Shown: one piece after another, positions 44,373-58,286 of the stretch | Numbering within the stretch: the stretch's first letter is position 1 | Layout of the letters: every line of letters starts with the position of its first letter | Made by a program: the position numbers and the translations under genes | Source of the DNA: Ectocarpus siliculosus | Taxonomy: Eukaryota > Sar > Phaeophyceae > Ectocarpales > Ectocarpaceae | DNA length: 64,000 nt | Direction: 5' to 3' | NCBI GenBank assembly: GCA_000310025.1 | Contig: FN649742.1 | Location: 4,564,492-4,628,491, forward strand | Notes under the pieces: model-generated | The model's input: the letters and a program-made list of their open reading frames with translations, nothing else | Database searches by the model: none | Told to the model about the DNA's origin: nothing

Positions 44373-44440
44373 TGCGAAGGTGTACCGATTCTGGTAAAAG
44401 TCAATCGACGGATACCCTGCGAATCGGGTCCTCCTTAACA
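44373..44440 (-). repeat. 3' LTR, 68 bases
   Basis: Identical over all 68 bases to 56740-56807. Read in the element's sense (minus strand) it starts TGTTAAGG and ends CCTTCGCA, so it has the TG...CA ends expected of an LTR. A CCGATTC/GAATCGG inverted repeat lies inside it. Confidence 0.8.
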
Positions 44441-44450
44441 CTCTCCACCC
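44441..44450 (-). promoter_or_regulatory. Polypurine tract
   Basis: In the sense strand GGGTGGAGAG abuts the 3' LTR (TGTTAAGG), preceded by an A run. This is the usual place and composition of the primer for plus-strand DNA synthesis, and it fixes the element's orientation independently of the ORFs. Confidence 0.7.
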
Positions 44451-45685
44451 ACAGATTTTTTTTTTTTTTGAGATGAGAAAGTTGCTTGTTATTGCTGAGA
44501 GACGATCAGCAAGGGTCTGAGGTGAAGTGGGGATCCAACTTCACCTCAGGGGGTACGCAGACTAGACAAATCCTAAGAGGGTAGGTGTCTGAAGGGTATA
44601 CCTCCTGGGACCGACCCACATCCTATCAACAATAAGATGTACCCTATTTAAGCTAGCAGCCACTCTCCTTAACACTAGCCCACCCTGAATATCATATATG
44701 CAGATTCTATACTCAAATCAATGCCCAAATCCTAAAAGCTACAACGAAGATTTTAGCTGACGATTGATGCTCATGAATCGAAGATATGACTCTTCACAAA
44801 ACATCCGAAAAGGAGGGTGAGTTGTAGAAACATCCCCGAATCAACCCCCACACCATCATTGAGACGAAAGATGGATGCGAACGGCCACGAGACAACACAT
44901 CGACATCTCAATGACAACGCCCCTACCAATGAAGGGATAAGGCCAAGAAAAATACGTAGTGCTGCACAGCACGCTATCCGCAACAGACGACGGCAAGAGA
45001 AATAAAGTCAAAACCTAAACGCCACACACCACTCTTTTACGCGCACCCGCGCGTATGACAATGGGAGGAATGAGGGCGACTACCCGAGAGAGCCCCAAAA
45101 TACGGCAACAAAACTCAAAACCCAAGCAAATTTCCGAACGAATACGGCCTTTGATACTGGACGCGACGTAAAGGGGAAGATATCAACGCAACCAATCTAG
45201 GAAAGCGTCAAGAAGGGCAGGAGAAATGAATGACAGGCGAACACACTGACAACAATTTCCAGCGTGTCAGAGAACTCAAACCGTATAGAGAGGCGGCCAC
45301 GGCAAGACCTAAAGAAAACCAAGAATGCAAAGCATGAATGATCAACGTCTGAGAAGCGATCTGACGAACTTGCCCTGGCTCGCTGGCAACGCACAACACA
45401 GGAAGACTCAAACAACACAGAAAAGTCGCAGAGATACACACAACAACACAACGACTCAAGGGCTCGACGATGATGAAGGCGTCGCCTGCAGGTAGCGATG
45501 ACGACGGAGACGAAGTAGAACGAAGTGTGGATGACGACGAATGTCCACGGGAGAAGACGACGCCACGGGATGGAAGCCCGAAGTAACAGGCCTAGATGAC
45601 ACTTCGGCGACACGGTGGAGCTAAAAAAAAATGAGTTGGCGAAAGGCGAACCAAGGGAAACACGAGAAACTCGGTGTTTGCCTGG

Positions 45686-45955
45686 TCAGAGGCGAACATA
45701 CCGACGAAACTTGGGGAACTCGTTGTTGAAGTGTTCAGAGGCAAACAACACCGACGAAACTTGGGGAACTCTTTTTCCAAGTGTTCAGAGGCAAAGAACA
45801 CCGACGAAACTTGGGGAACTCTTTTTCCAAGGGTTCAGAGGCAAACAACACCAACGAAACTTGGGGAACTCTTTTTCCAAGTGTTCAGAGGCAAAGAACA
45901 CCGACGAAACTTGGGGAACTCTTTTTCCAAGTGTTCAGAGGCAAACCACACGGAG
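45686..45955. repeat. 50-base tandem repeat, about 6 copies
   Basis: TCAGAGGC starts at 45686, 45735, 45785, 45835, 45885 and 45935. Units contain ACACCGACGAAACTTGGGGA and CTTTTTCCAAG; the first unit is the most diverged. A (CAAA)n tract follows at about 45958-46020. Both lie in the untranslated 3' region of the element. Confidence 0.93.
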
Positions 45956-46057
45956 AAAACAAAAACAAAAACAAAAAAAACAAACAAACGAACAAACAAA
46001 CAAACAAACAAACAAACAAAATCCAAGATAGACCAACTCGAACCTAAAACGGCGACG

Positions 46058-49000
46058 CTAGGAAGAGATATTGGGAACAGCCGACGGTAAGGAGTCAGTA
46101 ATGGGAGGAGTGCGATCCCGGGCGCCGCCCAAAGGGCGCGAGCGATGTTTTTCTAAACACCACGATCCACAGACGGCGTCCAAGGCGGTGGAGTAGAGGT
46201 GCGCAGGCAGAGGGAGAACGCTGGGGCCCGGGTCATCCAGAAATCGAACGATGTACGAGCCGTCCTGATGAGCACCAATACGTCCTGTCCACCATAATCC
46301 GTCGCGGGCCTTGTACCACAGCCGCGCTCCCACTGGAAGGGGCGAAATGCTGAAGCGACGGAGCCAAGTCGCGTGAAGCACAAGGCCAGCCCCAGGAGGC
46401 AAATAGCGTTCGCCACGATTCCGGGCTAGCTCCCGTTGTGCCGCGCGTGTCCGAGCCACTCGATACGTGCGGTTACCCTGCTTGCTTTGGCAGACCTCTC
46501 GAGACCAGTACAAGAGGATGTGTCGACGGAATTGATCGAGGTCGGACTCCCGTTCCCAAGAAGGAGTAGTCAGGCCTAGCCAATGCGTCTGGTACAGGAC
46601 AGCGAGAACGCCGCTACGGCCCCGCACCAATTGGTGTCCCGAAATGTAGTCGACCTCGAGGCGCCCGACAGGCACCGACACATCATCTGCGGTGACGTGA
46701 AACGGTGGACATTTATCGCCGAAAGAGTGCAGGACATAACGCGAAAGCTCAGCGGGTAGAGATTGGGGCAGGTCGTCCGTCTCGTATGGATTGCGACAGG
46801 GCTTGCAACGAAGGACAGATACGCGACATCGAGCTGCTGGGCCGGAAAGATCAGAAGGCACGTCCAGGTAGAGGAGTTTACGCGCCAACGGGCTTCCATC
46901 TGGGGTGGCGTCGGCCGAAGCGGGACCCACCGCAAGAACTTTGTAAGGCCCCGTCCAGGAAAGCGCGAATTTGTCCTTGAGCACCTGTTGATCCGTGTCG
47001 TTCCGCACACCCTGTCGAATTGTAGCAGCCGTGATGAAGACCCAAGCCCACCCGCCAACAGTAAATTGCGGGAGCTTGTGGATGGCGTCCAGCAGGGATG
47101 AATTACGGCGTTCGACTCGCGAGATCTTCAGGGCGTTGTACTCACGGACCAGGTCGTAGGCCCGGCGCTGACGATCGACAGCCAAGTTGCAGTACTCGAG
47201 TTGGTCACGGGCTAAGCTTTGATGACCACCTACCGTTGGATGATCGAAGACCGAAAGCGGAAGCCGCGGAATGCGTCCGATATGGATCTCGTTCGGCGCC
47301 AATCCAGTCGACTGGTTCACGGAATTGTTGCAGGCAAATTCGACGTGCGGGAGATGTACGTCCCAATCGTTTTGCTGTTCGTTGACGACTACCGCAAGCA
47401 TCTGAGCCATCGTGTGATTGACGCGTTCCGTGCCGCTGTTGGTTTGCGGGTGGTAGGAGCTGGTGGTGACTTTCTTGATTTTCATCACCTCGTAGATCGC
47501 CATGGAGAGCTTCGAGCAGAAATGCAGTCCGTTGTCCGACAATAACGTAGTCGGACATCCCCACTTGGTCATGTACTGGTTGACGAAGATGTGAGCCGTC
47601 CCTTTCGCCGTAAATTCCGCCGCTGTAACCGCGAACATGTCGGCTCTCCGGCTGAAACGGTCTGTGAACAACAAAATGTAGGAGTTGCCCTTGGCAGTCA
47701 CGGGCAGGGGTCCGAAGAAGTCGACGCCGACGACCGTACCAGGCCCCTGTGGCAATGGCATAGCGATGACGGGCCACCGAGCGGTTTGACGCGAAGTCTT
47801 GCGAGCTTGACACACCAAACACGCTCGAAGCCACCAGCGCACGGAACGATCCAGACCAATCCACCAGTAGAAACGCTCAAGCAGACGTTGTGTACGATGA
47901 ACACCGAGATGGAAGGACGCGGCGGTATGGCAGGCATGAAGGACCCACGGACGCATCAGCATGGGCACGTAGACACGGGGCACACCAGGATCCGGTAGAC
48001 GAGTGGTCCTGCCGCCAGAGCGCCCGATCGGCGATGGCGCCGATTGATGTACAAGGAGGGTGACGTTATCATCGGTCGTGTGCAGCCTGGTTTTCGCCGC
48101 CAACGCAAGGACATCGTCTAACCGAGGGGAGCGGAGCGGGGCACTAAGGGTGAGCAAGTCAGAAGGGGGTGGGGAGGGAGAGCCACGAGACAGAAAACGC
48201 ATAGCCACCACGCATTCGCTCTCCCGCTGTTGTTCCCTAGCCCAGTCCACAGTGCCGAAGCTCTGAACGCAAGCTCGCAAATGTGAGGGGTCCAAGTCAG
48301 TCGGCTCCAACCCAGAGTCAAGCGATCCCACGGGAGAGGCTGTAGAACGAGGAGCCTCAACGACTGGTGAAGTTGCAGACAGCGGTGTCACCCTAGGAGG
48401 AGGCATCGGGAGGGGCGAAGTCCCAGGCGAAACCTGGATAGAGGGCAAAACCGAGGATGCAGCGCGCGCCGATGCCGGCGAAGGCACCAGTGGCGCAGAG
48501 GCAGTCGACGAAAACGCCGACGTTGGCTTCGCAGATGACGGCAGGGGACGCGTGCCGGTCCGGATGGTCTTGTTTGTCGAGCGGGACCTGCTAGGACGAC
48601 GGGCAGTGGACGATGCCCGAGGGACGATGGTAGCCCGCGGCTGGCGTCCGAAATAGGTGGGACCGGTGACGGTGCCTCCAGAAGCAGCGGTGGTCTTGGC
48701 CCGAGTTCGTGAAGAAATGAGCGGTCCCCGCTCCGGAAGCGAAGACAGGACGTGCACATATCTATTCGCCAGAGACGCGGCCGGAGACATTCCGCGGGAC
48801 GTAGCCGGAGCCAAAGAGGAAACAGGCACCGGAGACGCGGAAACATGTGAGACCACGAAGACTCCCGAAGACCTCCGAAAATCTTGATAATCAATCGGTG
48901 AGTTCGATCGAACATCCAGCCGGCGCGGGTGATGACGGCGAAAATCCCCCAAAATCGGATGGCTGTAGCGCTGGGGGTGAAAAGACTCCCGCCGAGCAGG

Positions 49001-49102: not shown

Positions 49103-52100
49103 TGCAATCGGGGCCGGTTGTGTCCGTGTCTTGTGCTGGTAAAGGCAGCCGCGAAAGGAAATCCGCGTTGCCGTTTGCCGAACCTTTCCGATATTTCAGG
49201 GTGTAGGTGAAGTTGGACAGGAATTCGAGCCATCGTTGTACCCTGGCGTTGTGTTCTCCAACCTTGCCAATGCTCTCTAAGGCTTTGTGATCTGAATAGA
49301 TGATGAACTTGGTTGACCACAAATAGCCCCGAAGGCGCTTAATGGCCCAAACAATGCCACCAGCTTCCAGATCCAGAACAGTCCAGTTCCGCTCCGCCGG
49401 AAGAGTAGCGCGGCTGATGTACACAATGGGTCTTACCGAGCCATCGAGTTGTTCTTGTTCCAGGGAGGCTCCAAAGCCGTCAATGCACGCGTCGGAGCAC
49501 AAACGGAGAGGAAGGCTGTTGTCCTCGACCGCAGCCCAATCCGGGAAGACCAAAATCGGGGGACGCGCGAGTTCGCTCAACAACGTTTTGACAACCTTGA
49601 CCATGCCCGGGGTGTACTTGAAGGGGACGCCTTGTTTGAGAAGAGAGTTGAGAGGCCGCACCTTGGTGGCGAGATTCTGAAGGAATTTCCGGTAGTAGCT
49701 GAGGCCACCGAGGAGGCTCCTAAGCTGCTTAACATTCGTCGGCGGCGGCATGTGCGTGAGCGCCCGAACCTTGACGCCATCAGGGCTAACCCCAGCCGGG
49801 GAGATGGTGTGACCGAGGAAATTGGCGTGGGTGGCGCCGACACGAGCCTTCCCTGGAGACAGCTTGAGGTTGTACTGGCGCAGCCGTTTGAAAAACTCGA
49901 TCATGTTGAGCACGTGTCCCAGAGGTTCCTCATCGAAACAGATAACATCATCCAGATAGGCAAGCACACGCTCCAGACCGTGCACCACTCTGTTGATGAC
50001 CTTGACGAACCAAGACGGGCTTGCGTTGGCTCCTTGCGGCATCCGAAGCCATTCGAACAACTGCGTGGGAGTGCAAAAGGCGGTGAGCGGGACAGTGTCT
50101 TCGTCACAAACGATCTGGTGGAAGGCCGAATTGAGATCGAAGATGGAGAACACTTTCCCGGTGTAGAGAGAATCCAAGATACCGTCCACCCGAGGGAGAG
50201 GTTGTCCATCCAAGTCCACCAGGGCGTTGAGTCGTTTGTAGTTGACGGTGATGCGAACCGATCCGTCCTTCTTGGGGATGACGACCAGGGGAGAAGCCCA
50301 GGGAGAAGTGGAATGCTGAATGAGCCCTGCCGCCAAATACTGGTCCAAGACGGCATCCACTTTCTTCTGCATTAACGGGTTAATACGATACGGGCGTGAT
50401 GCGACGGGCTTCGTCCCTGCAGGGACAGAAAGAGTGAATGGCATGACGGTGCAGGAACCAAAATCGGTTTTCGAAGTAGAGAACACGTCAGAATACTCGA
50501 TAAGGGCGTCGGCCAAACGATCAATAGCCTCCGGTGTCCATCCCGGGTTGTGTAGATCGAAAGCGATGTCGTGCATATGTGCGGGCAGCCTAGTCCACAA
50601 TCGCAGAAAACTGGAGCGCTGGGCCTCGGAGAAGCGGTCAAGCAGTTTTTGTGGAGGCGGCTTCGGAGGAGGCGGGGCAGAGGCTGGGTCCGGAGAGCGG
50701 CGAGTCCCGGACTTGGGGCCAACGGCGTTGACCCGATGCGGTGATGTAGAGGACGGGGGGGCGGTGGGAGTCGAAGATGGAGCCGCCTTCAGGGTTTCTA
50801 CCGGTACTCGTAATAGCGGTGCAGCAGACACGCCAAGAACGTCGCCCGGCTCCAATTCGGCACAACCTGCAAGGGGAATACGCTGAAGACCATGGGAAAC
50901 AAATGCATCGGGGGACGAAAGTGCACCCACTTCAGGTCGGAACGATACGAGATATTCGCCGATCAGCGCAGGCATGCCCGAAGAACGGACGAGGTCCACC
51001 TCAACAAGGGCAGGCTCCGGCCCCAAGGAAATGCCCGAGCTCCCTGCATATTTGAGGTGAAACGAAGAGGCAGGAGCGTCGTCGTGTGTAGCGTAAACAC
51101 AAGCGCCAGCGGCGAAACGTGGAGAGAGCGTGAGCTCGCCCATAACCCGGCCGTCCGGTCCAGGGTGGGGGAGGGTGGTGAACACGCGAGAGTTGAACCG
51201 CATCCAGCTATCACGACCCAGAAGCACGGCGTGCCCCATGGCGGCATCTGGAACAACGCAGGCCCAGACCGCCAAAGAAGCGGTAGCTCGAGCTCCATGA
51301 AGAAAATTAACGGTGAGACGAACTGACCGAGTGGTCACAAGGGCGGGTCCATCACCAAACCCACCCCAACGACGAGAGGGCGAAACACGAACGCTGCCAG
51401 CTGTCAAGGCTCCAGCGGCGATCATGGCGGTGACCACGGAGTCGGACACAAAAGACGCAGGAGACCCAGAGTCCAGCAGTGCCACTCGCGCGAGTTGAGA
51501 AGTGGCTGTAGGTCCTCCATGTAGCAGAACCCGGGTGGTGTAAGAGTCCGAGTCCAACAGGAGCGTGCCGCCGACCAGATCGGGCCCGTGTTCCAGAAGA
51601 GGAGGTTGGTCTGCACAAGCGGAGGTCGAGGCCACCAGATGAACACCAGGAGCATGGTCCCCCGGAGCGTCCAAACGGAGACAAGCTGGGTCTTCACCCC
51701 GGTCCTCCCGTGACGACGAACCGGCCGCGGTAGCAACCTCGTGGATGCGTCTACGGCCATGGGGAAGAGGCTGCGAAATGGGGGGGGTGGGGGAAGTGGA
51801 GGCGGGGAGAGCTTCGCCAGACAGGGGATGATCCCGCAAAATGCGCCGAACTTCCATCAAAGCTTTTCCCAACAAGTTTTTACCGCTAGACGCCCACTTG
51901 GATGAAATGCTAGCCTCCGGAAAGCATGCAGACATGCCGATACCCCAAACACGATCAAAGGGGCTGGCTTCCGCAAGGAGGCGGGTACCCGTCTCCAGTA
52001 AATGTTGTTTCATGTCGTGGTTCTGAGCGAATTTGGCATACGACCCCGTAAGCACGATCTCTTCTCGACGACGCTCCCATTCGGCATAGTCAAAAGGACG

Positions 52101-52120
52101 TACGTTACGACTAAGTACTT
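48891..52120 (-). CDS. Pol: NADAR C-half, protease, RT and RNase H
   Basis: The open frame enters near 52120 and, numbered from a GTG at 52055, has 1054 codons. Residues 1-76 complete the NADAR domain begun in the previous frame (YAKFAQNHDM, EASPFDRVWGIG, GKNLLGKALMEVR). An aspartic protease follows at about 175-290 with ALLDSGSPASFV (DSG at 195-197) and VLLGRDSW. RT spans about 540-730: WASPLVVIPKKDGSVRITVN, FDLNSAFHQI and the catalytic AYLDD (700-703). RNase H spans about 850-970, with D855 in SDACIDGFG, E898, D922 in YSDHKAL and D965 in NADFLSR. Together these mature Gag-Pol and copy the RNA into DNA. The reading frame ends after a Pro/Ser-rich tail, 211 bases into the integrase frame. No stop interrupts the enzyme domains. 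Confidence 0.93.
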
Positions 52121-53395
52121 GTGTGTCTTAGGATCGGTTGCAGCCATGATTTTGTCATACGACGTCATATCCCCAAACAACTTCGCTTTTTCAGACATCA
52201 TAAATTGCTCACCACATGAATAACGTACCCCCAGTACGTCAAAAGCCGAGGGAGTCCATTGCGAGAACACAGACGGAGGTTTCCAGAAGAGGAGGACGTC
52301 ATCCGAAGCGTACTCGCATTTGTCATCAAACGGCGGAGCCGGTGCAGGGCAGAGGGGCAAAGAGCGGGCACCAGGCACGGGCGGGGGTGAGCCAAGCGGA
52401 CGGGTCCTCATCTCCGACGGGGAGGACCCAGAAAGCGAGGGAGGAGCGGGCGAAGTCGTTCCGGTCCATGATCCGGAGGGCGGCCTACGAGCGGCGGCTC
52501 CGGCGAGGTCAATGTTAGCAGAGGCCATTCGGCTATGAGAGACCCGTTCGTTAGGAGCAGTATTTCCTGCGGCAGACGGATGTGTGTGAATGGACGCAGG
52601 GCGCTCTGGACTACTCCCCCGTGACAAAGGAGCCGAACCTTCCACAGAATGGTGGGCACTACCATCCGATCCCGATGGCAGTGGTGCAGTCAGCACGTTG
52701 TGGGCAGCAGAGGAAGACGCATTCGTATCAGGTGCTGTCACACGGGGGCAGCGGACGGTCGAAGACAACGAAAGCTGCGAAAGAGAAGGAGAATCGACGG
52801 GATCCCCGGCGAATGTAGAAGAAGGCTCGTGTGCTATCCGAGAAGAGGCCCGGCTGACAACACCAGAAGAGTCTTGGCGAACAGTAGTAGACGAGGTTCT
52901 TGTTCCTTCTGTAACCCGAGACGACGAGGTGAGCAGGGGTGAACCGCTCGACGTCTTACCTCCCTGTCGCCCATACCACAAAGGTTGTGCCGGAGTGGGT
53001 TTGTCATGTCCAATACCAGCAGACGATGAGGCGGGCGACGAGGAGGCGGGCCGAGAAACTAAACGTGATTTGGGGACATCGGGAGTATCCAAAGAAGTAG
53101 GCTGTACACGAACATCTTGGGAGACTCCAAAAGGGTGCACGGTGGTTGCTGTTGACGGTAGTACCGGCTGAACTCCGCCATCGGCAAGTCATTTCTTACC
53201 CTTCCAGCCCCTCTTAGCCGAAGTGGAAGTCTCCGACGAGGATTCTGTGTGTGAGGACTGTTTCATGTCCGATGTGTCAAATGAGCGGCGGGCTCGTCCG
53301 GAGGAGTGATTACGGGGTGGGTTGCGTCCTGTAGGGCGTCTATACGAGGTCATGCGCTTTTTCCACCGACTCCAAAGTGCGGGATCTTTTTCCAT
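52010..53395 (-). CDS. Ser/Pro-rich region and NADAR N-half, one in-frame TGA
   Basis: One frame (starting with MEKDPALWSRWKKR at 53395) is interrupted by a TGA at 53191-53189 and then stays open to 52010. It begins inside the last 46 bases of gag in the -1 frame. After about 270 Ser/Pro/Thr-rich residues comes the first half of a NADAR (YbiA/DUF1768) domain: LLFWKPPSVFSQWTPSAF, VRYSCGEQFMMSEKAKLFGD, IMAATDPKTHKYL. The homology then leaves this frame and resumes one base back near AAGTACTTAG (52120-52111). NADAR proteins hydrolyse N-glycosidic bonds: YbiA-type enzymes act on riboflavin-pathway intermediates, and others remove ADP-ribose from nucleic acid. The conserved Glu of GEQF and the Lys cluster are present. 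What it does for a retroelement is unknown. Each frame break could be programmed recoding or decay. Confidence 0.82.
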
Positions 53396-56300
53396 GCAGG
53401 CTTGATGTCATTGTTAAGCAGGCCTGTGGCGTTAATGAAACCACGAGTACAGGATTTGAAGGAGTGATCTTCGCCTAAGCAGTTGAGGCACTTGCCCTTG
53501 TACAGCCGAAGCGCGTTGCGGCGGTCTTCAGCTGAGACCAAGGGGGTGAACAATGGCGGATCATTCTTGGTTAGAGCCATCTCACTAGCGACATTGTACA
53601 CCTCTTGAAAGTGTCCTTGCAACGGCCAGTCGCTGTAGTGCAACAGAAAAGGGTCCCGATCATCATTAGGCAGAGGGTCAACACTCATCACCGCAGCCGA
53701 AGAACCTCGGCTCCACGAAGGGGTCACCGACGAATGCAACGCCGAAGAAGCTACAGCACGCGAAACAGCAGACGCACTCCGAGCATTCGTGGAAGACACC
53801 GAAAAAAAATCGTCCCCATGTACCGCCGGCGTGTGCGCGAATGCACGCTTGTCCAACACATCCCACATATCGTCCAAGCACGAAGCATGTCGCCCAAAAG
53901 GGGCTTCCATGGAGAGCTGCTCATCCTTGTACACCTGTCCAGACACTACGGGAAACTGCTTCAACATGGAGTCTCGAACAGCTATCTGCACTTGCGCATC
54001 CGAAGGCTTGAACGCGTGGTGAGAAACCATGACGGTCATGGCCAGAGCCTTACAGCGACGAATGTATTCTCCGTAAGTCTCGCCGGTGGACACGCCAAAA
54101 CTACGAAGACGATCAATCCCCGAGCTCTTGTCTTGAGTGTCCCAGGCAGCCGCCAATTTCTGGATGAAGAACGCGTACGTCGAGGGCCCGGCCGGTGCCT
54201 TGCGCAGATGGTTTTCTACCTGTTGGAAAGTGGCATCAAGAAATTCCAGCGTGGCACGGTTGGTGGTTTGACCTTCAACGACAGCAGCACGAACACGTTT
54301 GCGCAACAACGGAAGCCATCCTGCGACCCAGGTGGAGGAAGTGAAAGTCTGCTTGCGTTTGACGTCGCTTTTGTTGAGGATCTCGGTGACCACGCCCTTG
54401 CAGCTAGACGCGAAACGAGCAAATTCATCGGGATCAGAACCAAGGGGCAAGCGTGTGACACTATCAAGTTGTTCCGGCTTCAGTTTGTCCATCTTGTCTT
54501 GAATGCGAATGGTGTCGGCCTCCGCTGCAGCGGCGTCCGCGGCGTCCAAAGCCTCCTGCCGCGCTCTCGCCCCCGTGGAAGACAAAGGCAAGCTAGCATC
54601 ATCCGGAGGCAACGGTGATGTCGCGTGGGCCGGTGACGCGATGACGTGGCCGGTCGCCAAGCAAGGATCGAGCAGGATAGACGGACGCGGGAGGGGGGGG
54701 GGCACCACCAAAGGCTGTTGTGGCAGAGCTGGGGCGGTCGACGCTGATGGCACCACCAAAGGCTGTTGCGGCAGAGCTGGAGCGGGCGACTCTGATGGCA
54801 CCACCAAAGGCTGTTGCGGCAGAGCTGGGGCGGTCGGCGCTGATGACGATGACACTGCCGTGGCCCTGGCAGCCGCCTCTTCATGAACCTCGTGCCCTGG
54901 ACGAACTCCCGAGGAACTCGAAGCGTGGTCTTGCAGTGGTGCCAAATGCGCTCGTGACGAAAAAGGTGGGGCAGAAAATGGTATGCTAGGGGCGTTCGAG
55001 GGCACAGAAGGTGGTACATTCGAGTCGGCAGCAGCATCCACAACTTGGCCAGGCGTTTGCGCGCGCAGGAGAGTGAGCACTTGTTCCAACAGCATTTCAG
55101 TACGGGAAGCCGAAGTCGAGGCGTGTGATGCAGCATTGTGCGGTGAACCAACCCGTTCGTCCAAAGGCAAGGAAGATGTGGGCGGATCTACGACGGTGTG
55201 TGTAGGGGCATGGCTTTTAACCGCGGCGGAATGTTCACGAAGTTGCATGTTGGCAAGTTTGAACGCCAAGGTAGACACGGGCGGCGGTCCTACATCAGCG
55301 GGGGGGCGCAAAACCCGTGGCGAAGAACAGAGAGAACCATCTTCTGAGGCATTCTTGCGTTCCCCCAACAGCCCAGAACTACGAAAATCACACCGATCAT
55401 ACTGCACTTGCCTGCGACCCCGACCTGACTTCCGTCGCCCTTTGCCCCCTCGACCGCTGTCCGAGCTGGTCGCCCTGCTGTTGCCCCCGCTCCTCGTCGG
55501 GCTCCGGCTGCGGCTACGCCTACGCGAAGGCGTGTTGCTCCCGCGACGGTCGCTGTTCCGGCTGCGACCACGCCGAGACGAAGGCGCGTGACGTTGCTGT
55601 CGGTCGGTGCTCCGGCTCCGGCTCCGGCTCCGGCTCTCGCGGTGTCGACGCTTGGACGAAGATCTGGGAGGTTGGGTTCCCGCGTACCCCCGCCCGCCAT
55701 CTTCGACACCCGGCCCTCGCGAAGTGCGCTCGGCCGTCCCGCTCTTGTCCGTGGGGGCTTGATCACCCCAACGGCTCCTCCGGCTGGTGGAGGCAGGAGC
55801 CGCCGACAGACTGTAGTCCTTGGTCCCTCCGGAAGCATGGACACGGCTTGCAGAATCCTGCTGAGGGAGCTGCAGATCATGCTGAAAATCTTCGTTAGTT
55901 GCAGTACGAGCTAGCGGCAACCGAATTCCCCCATTGTGTACCACCACCGCTGTTCCCTGGGGACCCTCGGTGAAAGAAGCCCTACGGAGAGCAGACACTA
56001 ACCGAAACACACTCTGTCGTAAGGACGGTTCAAGCTGGTCGAGGAATGGACTCGATACAAGATGTGCAAAACCACGGTCTGTATAAGAATCGGGACAGCG
56101 GTCACGCACAATTTGTTGGAGACCAGCCCACGCAAAAAGGGCACTAGTTCGATCAGCATCATGGAAGGTGATCACGTGTGTGGGCGTGGAAAGGGGACGG
56201 GACAGGACCGCTGTGTCTTCCGCGTGAAACCTGTACTCCTCGGCTTCGTCGTCCGACGCGCCGTCGGCATCCCCGGCCGGCCTACCCAGCGTCACAGAAA

Positions 56301-56791
56301 ACTGGGGAGCAGCAGCCACTTCCGGAGCCGCCTGGGGCGTGGGAGGGGGCACGACACGACGATGGGCGGGTCGCGAAAGCAAAGTTGAAGCTTGCGGCCG
56401 GTGCTCGAGGTCCTCCAGCCGTGATCGGAGCGCCCCCTGCTTCGCCCTAGCAGCCCGAACATACTCCTCGCGCGCCGCTAGTTCCGCTTTCTTCTGCGCA
56501 GCAGCCCGAGCAGCCTCGCGCTCCTCCTCCTGCTTCCTCGCAGCCTCCGCCAGAGCAGCCTGACGCTCCTCCTCCTGCTTCCTCGCAGCTTCCGCCAGAG
56601 CAGCCTCACGCTCCTTCGCCTGCTTCCTCGCAGCCTCCGCCAGAGCAGCCTGACGCTCCTCCTCCTGCTTCCTCGCATCATCCGCCAGAGCAGCCTCACG
56701 CTCCTCCAGCAGCTTCCGCTCTTCCGCCGCCGCTACATATGCGAAGGTGTACCGATTCTGGTAAAAGTCAATCGACGGATACCCTGCGAAT
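53350..56791 (-). CDS. Gag-like protein: coiled coil, SR-rich, CCHC knuckle
   Basis: The frame is open from host sequence at 56850, through the 5' LTR, to the stop at 53350, so about 1150 codons belong to the element. Just inside the LTR comes a long Glu/Ala/Lys heptad region (repeated EEERQAALAEAARKQ) expected to form a coiled coil, then an Arg/Ser stretch (SRSRSRST), Ser/Pro/Ala repeats including three near-identical units with LPQQPLVVPS, a conserved capsid-like part, and a zinc knuckle C-LN-C-LGED-H-SFKS-C near the C terminus. Gag packages the RNA and forms the particle. No ATG occurs in frame between the LTR and a Met about a third of the way in (NMQLREHS), so the start is unclear: a non-AUG codon, a spliced leader, or readthrough from the flank are all possible. 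The given start is the first codon after the LTR-internal GGA CCC. Confidence 0.85.
54700..54832 (-). repeat. Coding tandem repeat in gag (about 54 bases)
   Basis: Three consecutive units carry GGCACCACCAAAGGCTGTTG on the plus strand (54700, 54750 and 54798 approximately) and give LPQQPLVVPS-type decapeptides on the sense strand. Confidence 0.8.
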
Positions 56792-56807
56792 CGGGTCCTC
56801 CTTAACA
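56740..56807 (-). repeat. 5' LTR, 68 bases
   Basis: Identical to 44373-44440. In sense it reads TGTTAAGG...CCTTCGCA. Its 3' edge runs straight into the gag coiled-coil coding region (TATGTAGCGGCGGCGGAAG), leaving practically no leader. Confidence 0.8.
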
Positions 56808-56811
56808 CAGG
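56808..56811. repeat. Target-site duplication, right (CAGG)
   Basis: The first four bases after the right LTR repeat the four before the left LTR. Removing the element and one copy gives a continuous empty site GGTAACAGGCTCAAC. Confidence 0.75.
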
Positions 56812-58286
56812 CTCAACAAGACAGTTTGGTAGCTGTCTTGTGTGTCTCATATATGTTATGTTGGGAAGGTGTAGAAGAAATGTGTTAGGTACTGGTCGGG
56901 CGTTTTGTGTGTGGCACCCTTGTTGTAGTCGTAGGGCATGTAATCTCCCTCAGTTTTCAAACGTATTTTCGATGTGGTACGCGTATGTTGTATATTAATA
57001 TGTGCGGACACATCTCGGATCATGTGCGGACACACGGGAGTGGTGTCACCATTTTCTTACATTTTTGTGTAATTTCGTGTCGTTTAATGTGCAAATGGCG
57101 CGGGAGAACATTCTTTCATCATTGCCTCCTGACGTGGTCGCCGATAGAGGCGTGTGGTTGAGGTTTCATTACCGACATGTGGGTGTGTGTTAAATGCAGT
57201 GGGTATGGTTGCCTATCTCGCCCGTGTGTAGGCAGAAGGTATGGCTACCTCTCCCATTAGTAGGGAGCGTGGACCACAAGTAAAGACAGGGTCCATCATT
57301 TCATGTATGTTACAACATCAATTTGTATTTGGCATGAGAGGAATAAGAGGTTGTTCTAGTTTGTAAGGAATTTTGACGGTGCATGGGCACGAGGAGTACT
57401 CCCTGTGTCCGTGTTGTACCCAGGTCTTGTCGCATCATCAGTTGTCGCATCAGTTGGCGGCATGTGTCATGGACAGGTAGACGTGGAATGGCGGCGACAG
57501 GTGAAGCGCGGCGACAGGTGAAGGCAGCTGCAGTATGTTGTGCATGGTGGCATGTTGGGCTTGTACATAGATAGCGTAGTCCATCCTTCGACCACACACA
57601 AAGGAGTTTGTTCGTACCTGTGGGGATTTTTCGGAGTCCTGGGTCAGCCAAAAGCAGCAGCAAGGAGCAAACGCAGTGCAGTATGCTACTACAGCTTTAC
57701 AGTCCGTCCTCCTCAAGTCCTATCGGAGATGATAAGTATCGCACAACGGCTGGATCCGAAATGCCGGCTAGCTCCGCAATCCAAGAGAGGTGGGTGGCTG
57801 AGCTAAGAACGGAATGACTGCATGCGTGCTCCTCTCAGCAGATTGATGTGGCTGGCTGGCTCTTTGAAGTGCAGATTTCAGCGGAGTTTGTCGGAATTCC
57901 CAATTTTCCGTTTGCCACCTGGGTATATGGGAGTTTTTCATGAAAGGTGCACATAAATCGATTATCCTAATTGCAAGGGACACGTTTCATTTTTAGTGTT
58001 CCCCCTTGCGGTTTCGACGGTCAAATATGCGGTTGCCCACAGATTTTCGCATCGCTATAAGCTATCAAGCTCCTAATGAAGTATGTGTGTGTAGTTTTGG
58101 TAGCGCAAAAAGCAAATTGAACGGGAATTTTACGTCATTAATTACATACCAGCGAGCTTATTGATCATATAGACATTACACAACATAACAACATTTCAGG
58201 AATTGCTGAACAAAAGAATGAAACACTTCCTAATAAAGCGAAACATAATCAAAACAAAAACAACACATGATAGCACGTAAGCTAAT
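56812..58286. other. Right host flank; no gene seen
   Basis: AT-richer than the left part of the window. An AAGACAG...CTGTCTT inverted repeat lies at about 56817-56840, near the insertion site. Small frames only. Confidence 0.5.

What the first reader, a model, noticed from the sequence alone, without database searches (positions are those of the whole stretch)
51828..52318. NADAR (YbiA/DUF1768) domain captured by a Ty3/gypsy chromovirus
Between Gag and protease the element encodes about 163 residues matching NADAR along its length: FSQWTPSAF, CGEQFMMSEKAKLFGD, YAEWERRR, YAKFAQNHDM, EASPFDRVWGIG and GKNLLGKALMEVR. NADAR enzymes cut N-glycosidic bonds (YbiA-type), and some remove ADP-ribose from nucleic acids. 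A retroelement carrying one could use it to clear host ADP-ribosylation of its RNA or cDNA, or to manage nucleotide metabolites; this role is inference. The domain sits where some retroelements carry dUTPase or other accessory enzymes.
Basis: partly seen in the sequence, partly recalled or inferred. Interest (0 to 1): 0.88.

Follow-up and report, generated by a model that had tools for sequence, protein, structure and literature searches.

The report
Retrotransposon with an ADP-ribose-removing enzyme domain
A family of jumping genes in what looks like a brown alga carries, inside its replication polyprotein, an enzyme domain of the kind that removes ADP-ribose from nucleic acids; the domain is kept by selection, but such elements were already described in Ectocarpus in 2025 and what the enzyme does for them is untested.

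Summary
The NADAR domain is real. In the window copy it lies on the minus strand at 52288-51834, broken by a frameshift near 52,110; each half matches Pfam PF08719 above the cut-off. It is no one-off: the genome holds at least 150 NADAR matches, and 106 of 132 relatives of this element's reverse transcriptase have one upstream on the same strand. In 13 copies NADAR, RT and integrase tail report one identical open-frame length. Across five subfamilies NADAR is as conserved as the protease (58% vs 55% identity; omega 0.105 vs 0.088), the linker between them is not, and 32 of 34 loci that cover them keep eight ADP-ribose-contact residues. Such elements are already published for Ectocarpus (PMC12477816). 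New here: tests of selection and active-site residues, and a brown-algal host NADAR gene as nearest non-transposon kin. Best reading: an active YbiA-type ADP-ribosyl hydrolase at the start of Pol, probably acting on the element's RNA or cDNA; the substrate is inferred. 'Chromovirus' is not supported.

The parts
53350..56850 (-). Gag-like ORF (1166 aa from its first ATG) with internal tandem repeats and, near its end, a CCHC-type zinc-knuckle sequence; no Pfam hit. Homology with sibling copies stops at 56736, so the ATG at 56850 lies outside the shared element
   Evidence: ORF; no Pfam; homology limit; the knuckle is read from the sequence, motif recalled
52112..53188 (-). N-terminal part of the Pol frame in the window copy: low-complexity leader (first ATG at 52528), then the NADAR N half
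52112..52288 (-). NADAR N half (PF08719 profile 2-73), with the equivalents of E43 and K50
   Evidence: spacing against 8BAU
51834..52109 (-). NADAR C half (PF08719 up to profile position 163), in another frame, with the equivalents of R79, W89, R93, E125, D130, W133
   Evidence: separated from the N half by a frameshift near 52,110
51200..51600 (-). aspartic protease (LLDSGSP ... LLGRDS); no Pfam protease hit, assigned from its motifs; limits approximate
   Evidence: motif meaning recalled
49803..50279 (-). reverse transcriptase (RVT_1, E 7.3e-26)
49209..49520 (-). RNase H (RT_RNaseH, E 1.3e-27)
47447..47968 (-). integrase: H2C2 zinc finger (E 1.4e-14) and rve core (E 2e-7, 31.6 bits, just under the 32.6-bit cut-off); in a different frame from RT in the window copy
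46502..46657 (-). weak chromodomain-like segment in the integrase tail
   Evidence: window E 0.15; best of 6 members 0.0061

Best explanation
The domain is a working YbiA-type NADAR hydrolase that forms the first recognisable domain of Pol, just before the protease, in one Ty3/Gypsy lineage of what is probably a brown alga. It was in place before the sampled subfamilies split and has been kept by purifying selection since (shown, on the sampled copies). It has the residues that contact ADP-ribose in the Phytophthora NADAR (shown), so it probably cuts the bond between ADP-ribose and guanine (inferred from homologues). Made as part of Pol, it would be carried into the particle and freed by the protease (inferred), where its likely job is to remove ADP-ribose from the element's RNA or cDNA before or during reverse transcription (inferred, weakest step). 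It shares an ancestor with a brown-algal host NADAR gene more recently than with the other NADARs sampled.
For: Pfam match of both halves and of five intact siblings at E 7e-48 to 3e-47. 106 of 132 RT relatives have NADAR upstream on the same strand, 102 of these 106 at 1522-1825 bases, against 1 of the 150 best rve matches in the genome, among which the window's own integrase is not listed. 13 copies, counted by eye, report one identical open-frame length (2200-2580 aa) for NADAR, RT and integrase tail. Between subfamilies NADAR averages 58.3% and PR 54.8% identity over 77 pairs, linker 16-40%. Codon omega 0.105 (NADAR) and 0.088 (PR); NADAR log-likelihood -2596.9 against -2752.1 with omega fixed at 1. 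NADAR and PR trees join the five subfamilies in the same order. All eight ADP-ribose residues in 32 of 34 loci that cover them. Phytophthora NADAR (YbiA type) hydrolyses guanine-linked ADP-ribose (PMC11543638, passages). PMC9503650 says NADARs of RNA viruses tend to sit in polyproteins with the polymerase and proposes that in eukaryotic RNA viruses they mainly target macromolecular ADP-ribosylation by the host (passages). Database proteins join NADAR to an RNase H with a reverse-transcriptase-like part (P0020) and to an mRNA-capping enzyme (P0143).
Against: No activity, expression or particle data. No DarT and no PTS_2-RNA (Tpt1/KptA) match in the genome and only 4 short PARP-like matches, so no enzyme that would ADP-ribosylate nucleic acids is identified; these searches go exon by exon and can miss genes with introns, the PARP and ART controls rang in 0 of 14 genomes, and the ART answer (none) is uninformative. 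PMC9503650 also posits that viral NADARs, phage ones above all, may prefer soluble ADP-ribose derivatives. The fold could not be tested. The first 30 loci were the best NADAR scores, which favours conserved copies. Both halves of the window's own domain are cut apart by a frameshift.
Confidence: 0.5

Rival explanations
1. Metabolite housekeeping: the domain acts on small molecules (cyclic or linear ADP-ribose derivatives, NAD breakdown products, riboflavin-pathway intermediates), cleaning the nucleotide pool or blunting a host NAD-derived alarm signal, much as retroviral dUTPase cleans dUTP.
For: PMC9503650 posits that viral NADARs might prefer soluble ADP-ribose derivatives and says that NADARs act on riboflavin intermediates (passages). 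Position before the protease matches dUTPase in some retroviruses (recalled).
Against: Characterised NADARs hydrolyse ADP-ribosylated guanine (PMC11543638, PMC11125620, passages). For eukaryotic RNA viruses PMC9503650 itself favours macromolecular targets. Nothing I computed separates the two substrate classes.
Confidence: 0.27
2. Reader, not eraser: the domain binds ADP-ribose or nucleic acid and serves in RNA packaging or in targeting, without needing catalysis.
For: The lineage also carries weak chromatin-reader-like segments in the integrase tail, so reader modules are plausible here.
Against: The catalytic glutamate is kept in 49 of 50 loci and the E/K pair in all but one of those that cover it; a pure binder need not keep the catalytic glutamate.
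Confidence: 0.12
3. Passenger or one-off insertion with no function.
For: The window copy itself is broken.
Against: At least 150 genomic matches, five diverged subfamilies, omega about 0.1, conservation equal to the protease, uniform position.
Confidence: 0.01
4. On origin, a separate question: the brown-algal stand-alone NADAR gene descends from the transposon domain rather than the transposon domain from the host gene.
For: In the 35-row tree the host clade falls among transposon clades with 88/82 support; 86/82.
Against: Transposon NADARs as one clade are not rejected (AU p 0.461). The genome's own host gene matches in separate pieces, as a gene with introns would, and its relatives carry an N-terminal extension.
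Confidence: 0.3

Closest known systems
NADAR-bearing Gypsy lineage of Ectocarpus (e.g. Gypsy-12_Ec32), PMC12477816
   Same: [quoted passage not shown] the window element very likely belongs to this lineage
   Different: The parts of the paper that I read (section 5 part 1, other passages by search) give no test of selection or catalytic residues and suggest horizontal transfer, the hits outside Ectocarpus being almost all bacterial; here a brown-algal host gene is nearest. I do not hold the Gypsy-12_Ec32 sequence and could not compare
Phytophthora nicotianae NADAR (PMC11543638; I take PDB 8BAU to be this protein from its residue numbering, the listing names no organism)
   Same: YbiA-type; the eight ADP-ribose-contact residues at the same spacing (8BAU: E 3e-17)
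   Different: Described as an orphan NADAR, not part of a retroelement
NADAR in ORF1 of Tx1 LINEs of Pacific oyster (PMC12477816)
   Same: NADAR carried by a retrotransposon
   Different: Non-LTR element, ORF1 rather than Pol; seen only in the paper's text
NADAR in polyproteins of positive-strand RNA viruses (PMC9503650, passages)
   Same: Domain embedded in a replication polyprotein with the polymerase
   Different: RNA viruses of animals, no reverse transcription
AlkB m6A demethylase in orchid Ty3/Gypsy elements (PMC9289625, abstract)
   Same: A Gypsy element that captured an enzyme able to remove a modification from RNA; demethylase activity shown in vitro
   Different: Different enzyme and modification; carried in an additional ORF
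dUTPase between Gag and protease in some retroviruses (recalled)
   Same: Accessory enzyme between Gag and protease
   Different: Different fold and substrate

Membership tests
NADAR superfamily (PF08719) | Profile match above the curated cut-off | tested here: met
   Both halves above 35.1 bits; five intact siblings 161.4-163.4 bits
NADAR superfamily (PF08719) | YbiA fold | tested here: inconclusive
   Single-sequence model mean pLDDT 34.5, unusable; alignment-based job not accepted
YbiA subfamily | Glutamate at the last-strand catalytic position (Asp in BC4488, His in phage type) | tested here: met
   E in 49 of 50 loci at the aligned column; E in 88 of 88 rows of A1
YbiA subfamily | E43/K50 and the ADP-ribose contacts R79, W89, R93, D130, W133 | tested here: met
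   All eight (with E125) in 32 of 34 loci that cover them; exceptions L033 and L036. R93 is R in 49 of 50 loci but in only 36 of 88 rows of A1, so it is not a family-wide mark
YbiA subfamily | Hydrolysis of guanine-linked ADP-ribose | not testable with these tools
   Needs an assay
Ty3/Gypsy (Metaviridae) | Pol order PR-RT-RNase H-integrase, RT matching RVT_1 | tested here: met
   (PR from motifs only)
Ty3/Gypsy (Metaviridae) | Long terminal repeats | tested here: inconclusive
   Only a 69-base identical pair flanks the window copy, and it is a dispersed genomic repeat; homology with siblings stops at 56736 and at 44468-44470
Chromovirus | Chromodomain at the integrase C terminus | tested here: inconclusive
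   5 of 6 members match Chromo weakly, best E 0.0061; the window copy has 12.5 bits against a cut-off of 25.1
Chromovirus | RT inside the chromovirus clade | not tested

The most novel reading that the evidence does not exclude
The retroelement domain erases ADP-ribose that the host puts on the element's RNA or cDNA, which would mean that brown algae have an undiscovered nucleic-acid ADP-ribosylation defence against retroelements, with host and transposon versions of the same NADAR exchanged between the two sides.
Probability: 0.22. Interest if true: 0.88.

Novelty: already known. Interest (0 to 1): 0.5.

Why it matters
The physiological role of NADARs across eukaryotes is stated to be unclear (PMC11125620, discussion passage). 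A multi-copy retroelement that keeps a NADAR with all its contact residues beside its protease gives a concrete setting in which to ask which nucleic acid or metabolite the enzyme acts on. If the target is element RNA or cDNA, ADP-ribosylation of nucleic acids would become a candidate layer of genome defence in multicellular algae, and the tie with a host gene would point to exchange between the two sides. As a find, the capture itself is already in print.

Tried and rejected
Rejected: one-off insertion; neutral passenger; chance similarity. Rejected as stated: chromovirus. Bacteria as the direct source (horizontal transfer is suggested in PMC12477816): not favoured, because transposon and brown-algal stand-alone NADARs form one side of a branch against the 18 other rows (96/89; 90/84; 86/96 with 12 of the 80 fetched viral-contig relatives added). 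Viral donor: the best of the 80 viral-contig relatives kept (of 518 found, itself a capped list) are 50% identical to the window family, lower than the stand-alone algal proteins P0024, P0025, P0027 and P0029 (54-60%); none of the 12 put in the tree entered the clade.

Led nowhere: structure prediction (single-sequence model pLDDT 34.5). LTR search: ends not resolved. Host ADP-ribosyltransferase searches: DarT none, PTS_2-RNA none, ART none but silent in its controls too, PARP 4 short matches, controls also silent. Scan of viral contigs with the capping-enzyme protein P0143: no match.

Papers: among the rows listed (20 of 104; 15 of 15; 15 of 1,270; 15 of 5,549), PMC12477816 is the only one I found that reports NADAR in retrotransposons. 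Not all listed papers were opened; PMC7926851 and PMC6679389 contain the letters 'nadar' 9 and 7 times and were not opened (I guess an author name). (12 of 105 listed) shows papers on PARP-family proteins and retroelements (ZAP, PMC4441479; TASOR, PMC7532188; listing only); I saw none there on ADP-ribosylated retroelement nucleic acid.

Selection bias to bear in mind: L001-L030 are the 30 best NADAR scores of 150, and L031-L050 are ranks 121-140; ranks 31-120 and 141-150 were not read as sequence. The codon models use 15 of the 16 loci with both domains open (one duplicate dropped); the open-frame and motif filters dropped 22 of 50 loci for NADAR and 25 of 50 for PR.
Full report
What is there. 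On the minus strand the window holds a Ty3/Gypsy-type retroelement copy: a Gag-like ORF (56850-53350), an ORF ending at 52010 that contains the N half of a NADAR domain, a frame open from about 52127 to 48891 with the C half of NADAR, protease motifs, reverse transcriptase and RNase H, and an ORF to 46058 with the integrase. The two NADAR halves are in different frames that meet near 52,110, so this copy's NADAR is broken; RT and integrase are also in different frames here. I scanned the halves apart: PF08719 E 2.6e-9 and E 7e-21, both over the curated cut-off.

It is a lineage, not an accident. A scan of the window's own genome (189 Mb, 492 contigs) gave 150 NADAR matches, the number scored of 230 candidates. 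A search with the window's RT gave 132 matches (131 of 543 candidates scored). By coordinates, 106 of these 132 have a NADAR match upstream on the same strand, 102 of the 106 at 1522-1825 bases and the rest at 650, 684, 1375 and 2667; 106 of the 150 NADAR matches have a listed RT partner. The unpaired rows (26 RT, 44 NADAR) are not evidence of absence, because both lists are capped. As a control, 1 of the 150 best matches of the general integrase core profile (150 of 658 candidates scored; the window's own integrase is not among them) has a listed NADAR upstream within 8 kb. In the window's own subfamily, 28 full-length RT matches are at least 97% identical in protein to the window's, itself included; 22 of these 28 have a NADAR match over profile 2-163 without stops, counted by eye. 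In 13 copies, counted by eye, the NADAR, RT and integrase-tail matches report one identical open-frame length (2200-2580 aa): C27:2312434, C340:312890, C25:890665, C344, C36:378399, C260, C15:5110026, C23:3052651, C89:161521, C1:932147, C24:2694085, C25:3767898, C237. So in these copies NADAR is, in all likelihood, translated as part of Pol. In the window copy the Gag and Pol frames do not overlap and the first ATG of the Pol frame is at 52528, where the Ectocarpus database proteins P0001 and P0003 also start.

It is under selection. Among 50 loci read, five diverged subfamilies were compared (representatives L014, L020, L013, L029, L025/L030). Between-subfamily identity averages 58.3% in NADAR and 54.8% in the protease (77 pairs among 15 copies), while the linker between them is 16-40% identical between these subfamilies (L045, a closer relative of the window subfamily, has 56%). 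One-ratio codon models give omega 0.105 for NADAR and 0.088 for protease; for NADAR the log-likelihood is -2596.9 against -2752.1 with omega fixed at 1 and kappa fixed at 2, so the two models are not strictly nested. The NADAR and protease trees join the subfamilies in the same order, and the distance matrices correlate at 0.985 (0 of 2000 permutations as high; 0.71 among the 77 between-subfamily pairs alone). Codon-tree branches between subfamilies are longer than 1 change per codon, so the omegas are rough. Loci L001-L030 are the best NADAR scorers, which favours conserved copies.

The active site is complete. In the Phytophthora nicotianae NADAR the ADP-ribose contacts include E43, K50, R79, W89, R93, E125, D130 and W133, and the enzyme removes guanine-linked ADP-ribose (PMC11543638, passages). 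8BAU, which I take to be that protein from its residue numbering, is the best match among solved structures (E 3e-17; E. coli YbiA 2B3W E 2.3e-4), and the eight residues fall at the same spacing. Of 34 loci that cover all eight positions, 32 have all eight; L033 and L036 do not. The last-strand glutamate marks the YbiA subfamily (PMC11125620, passages). Structure prediction gave no usable model and the alignment-based job was not accepted.

Where it came from. In a 97-row tree the transposon NADARs and four stand-alone proteins of 209-252 aa (Ectocarpus fasciculatus, Ectocarpus sp. 13, Scytosiphon promiscuus and an unnamed EukProt entry), with P0021 and a Pylaiella fragment, form one clade (90/84); in a 35-row tree transposon plus host rows are one side of a branch against 18 others (96/89; P0021 and the Pylaiella fragment were counted as transposon there, which is my assumption); with 12 viral-contig relatives added, 86/96. 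The window's genome has its own copy of the host gene: separate matches on contig C24 at 81% identity to residues 1-103 and 92% to residues 178-241 of the Ectocarpus sp. 13 protein, as for a gene with introns; the letters could not be fetched. Whether the transposon took the domain from the host or the reverse is open: the best trees put the host clade among transposon clades (88/82 and 86/82), but one transposon clade is not rejected (AU p 0.461). This differs from PMC12477816, which found almost only bacterial hits after setting Ectocarpus aside and suggested horizontal transfer.

What is known. PMC12477816 (September 2025; [quoted passage not shown] it suggests a role in processing RNA intermediates. 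Ectocarpus sp. CCAP 1310/34 proteins match the domain at 81-92%, some over part of it, so the window genome is probably Ectocarpus or a close relative; its name was not given to me. The core finding is therefore already known.

How it probably works. Shown: a conserved YbiA-type domain with all eight contact residues inside Pol, next to the protease, kept since before the sampled subfamilies split. Inferred: it is an active hydrolase (from the studied homologues); it is packaged and released with Pol (from general retroelement biology); it removes ADP-ribose from element RNA or cDNA. For the last step the support is convergent: NADARs sit with polymerases in RNA-virus polyproteins, where macromolecular targets are proposed (PMC9503650), in retrotransposons of two kinds (PMC12477816), in a database protein with an RNase H match and, by my reading, a YIDD-type RT (P0020) and in another with an mRNA-capping enzyme (P0143). 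Against it: PMC9503650 also posits soluble ADP-ribose derivatives for viral NADARs, and this genome shows no DarT or PTS_2-RNA match and only four short PARP-like matches, so no writer of the mark is identified; genes with introns can escape these searches.

Noticed in passing
window 44373-44441 and 56740-56808: A 69-base sequence, identical in both places, flanks the element copy; it is a dispersed repeat with 353 candidate sites in the genome (40 scored), sometimes in close pairs. Next to the left copy is a run of about 14 T, and homology with sibling elements stops at 44468-44470 and 56736. True LTRs, target preference or a nested insertion are not resolved.
   Followed up: partly
window about 46220-46350 (minus): After the weak chromodomain-like segment the integrase tail has a conserved WYKARDGLWW...YIVRFLDDPG stretch that weakly matches a solved zinc-finger CCCH-type with G-patch protein (4ii1, E 0.29); it looks Tudor-like to me (recalled). 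The Ectocarpus paper reports Tudor only in a different Gypsy lineage.
   Followed up: partly
protein P0143 (database protein, 1167 aa): mRNA capping enzyme and cap methyltransferase domains with a C-terminal NADAR; my guess is a giant virus, not shown. Hints at RNA 5' ends as a NADAR substrate.
   Followed up: partly
protein P0020 (JGI, 924 aa): NADAR near the N terminus of a protein with an RNase H match and, by my reading, a YIDD-type reverse transcriptase: possibly another retroelement type that captured NADAR.
   Followed up: no
window 56444-56731 and 54701-54845: Tandem repeats inside the Gag-like ORF: units of 45 and 48 bases.
   Followed up: no
window 45650-46010: Tandem array with a 50-base unit just downstream of the integrase ORF.
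   Followed up: no
contigs C3:3913787 and C489:435177 of G000: Reported open frames of 10887 and 6365 aa around NADAR; L034 at C489 holds 1591 N, so masked stretches read as open may explain that one.
   Followed up: partly
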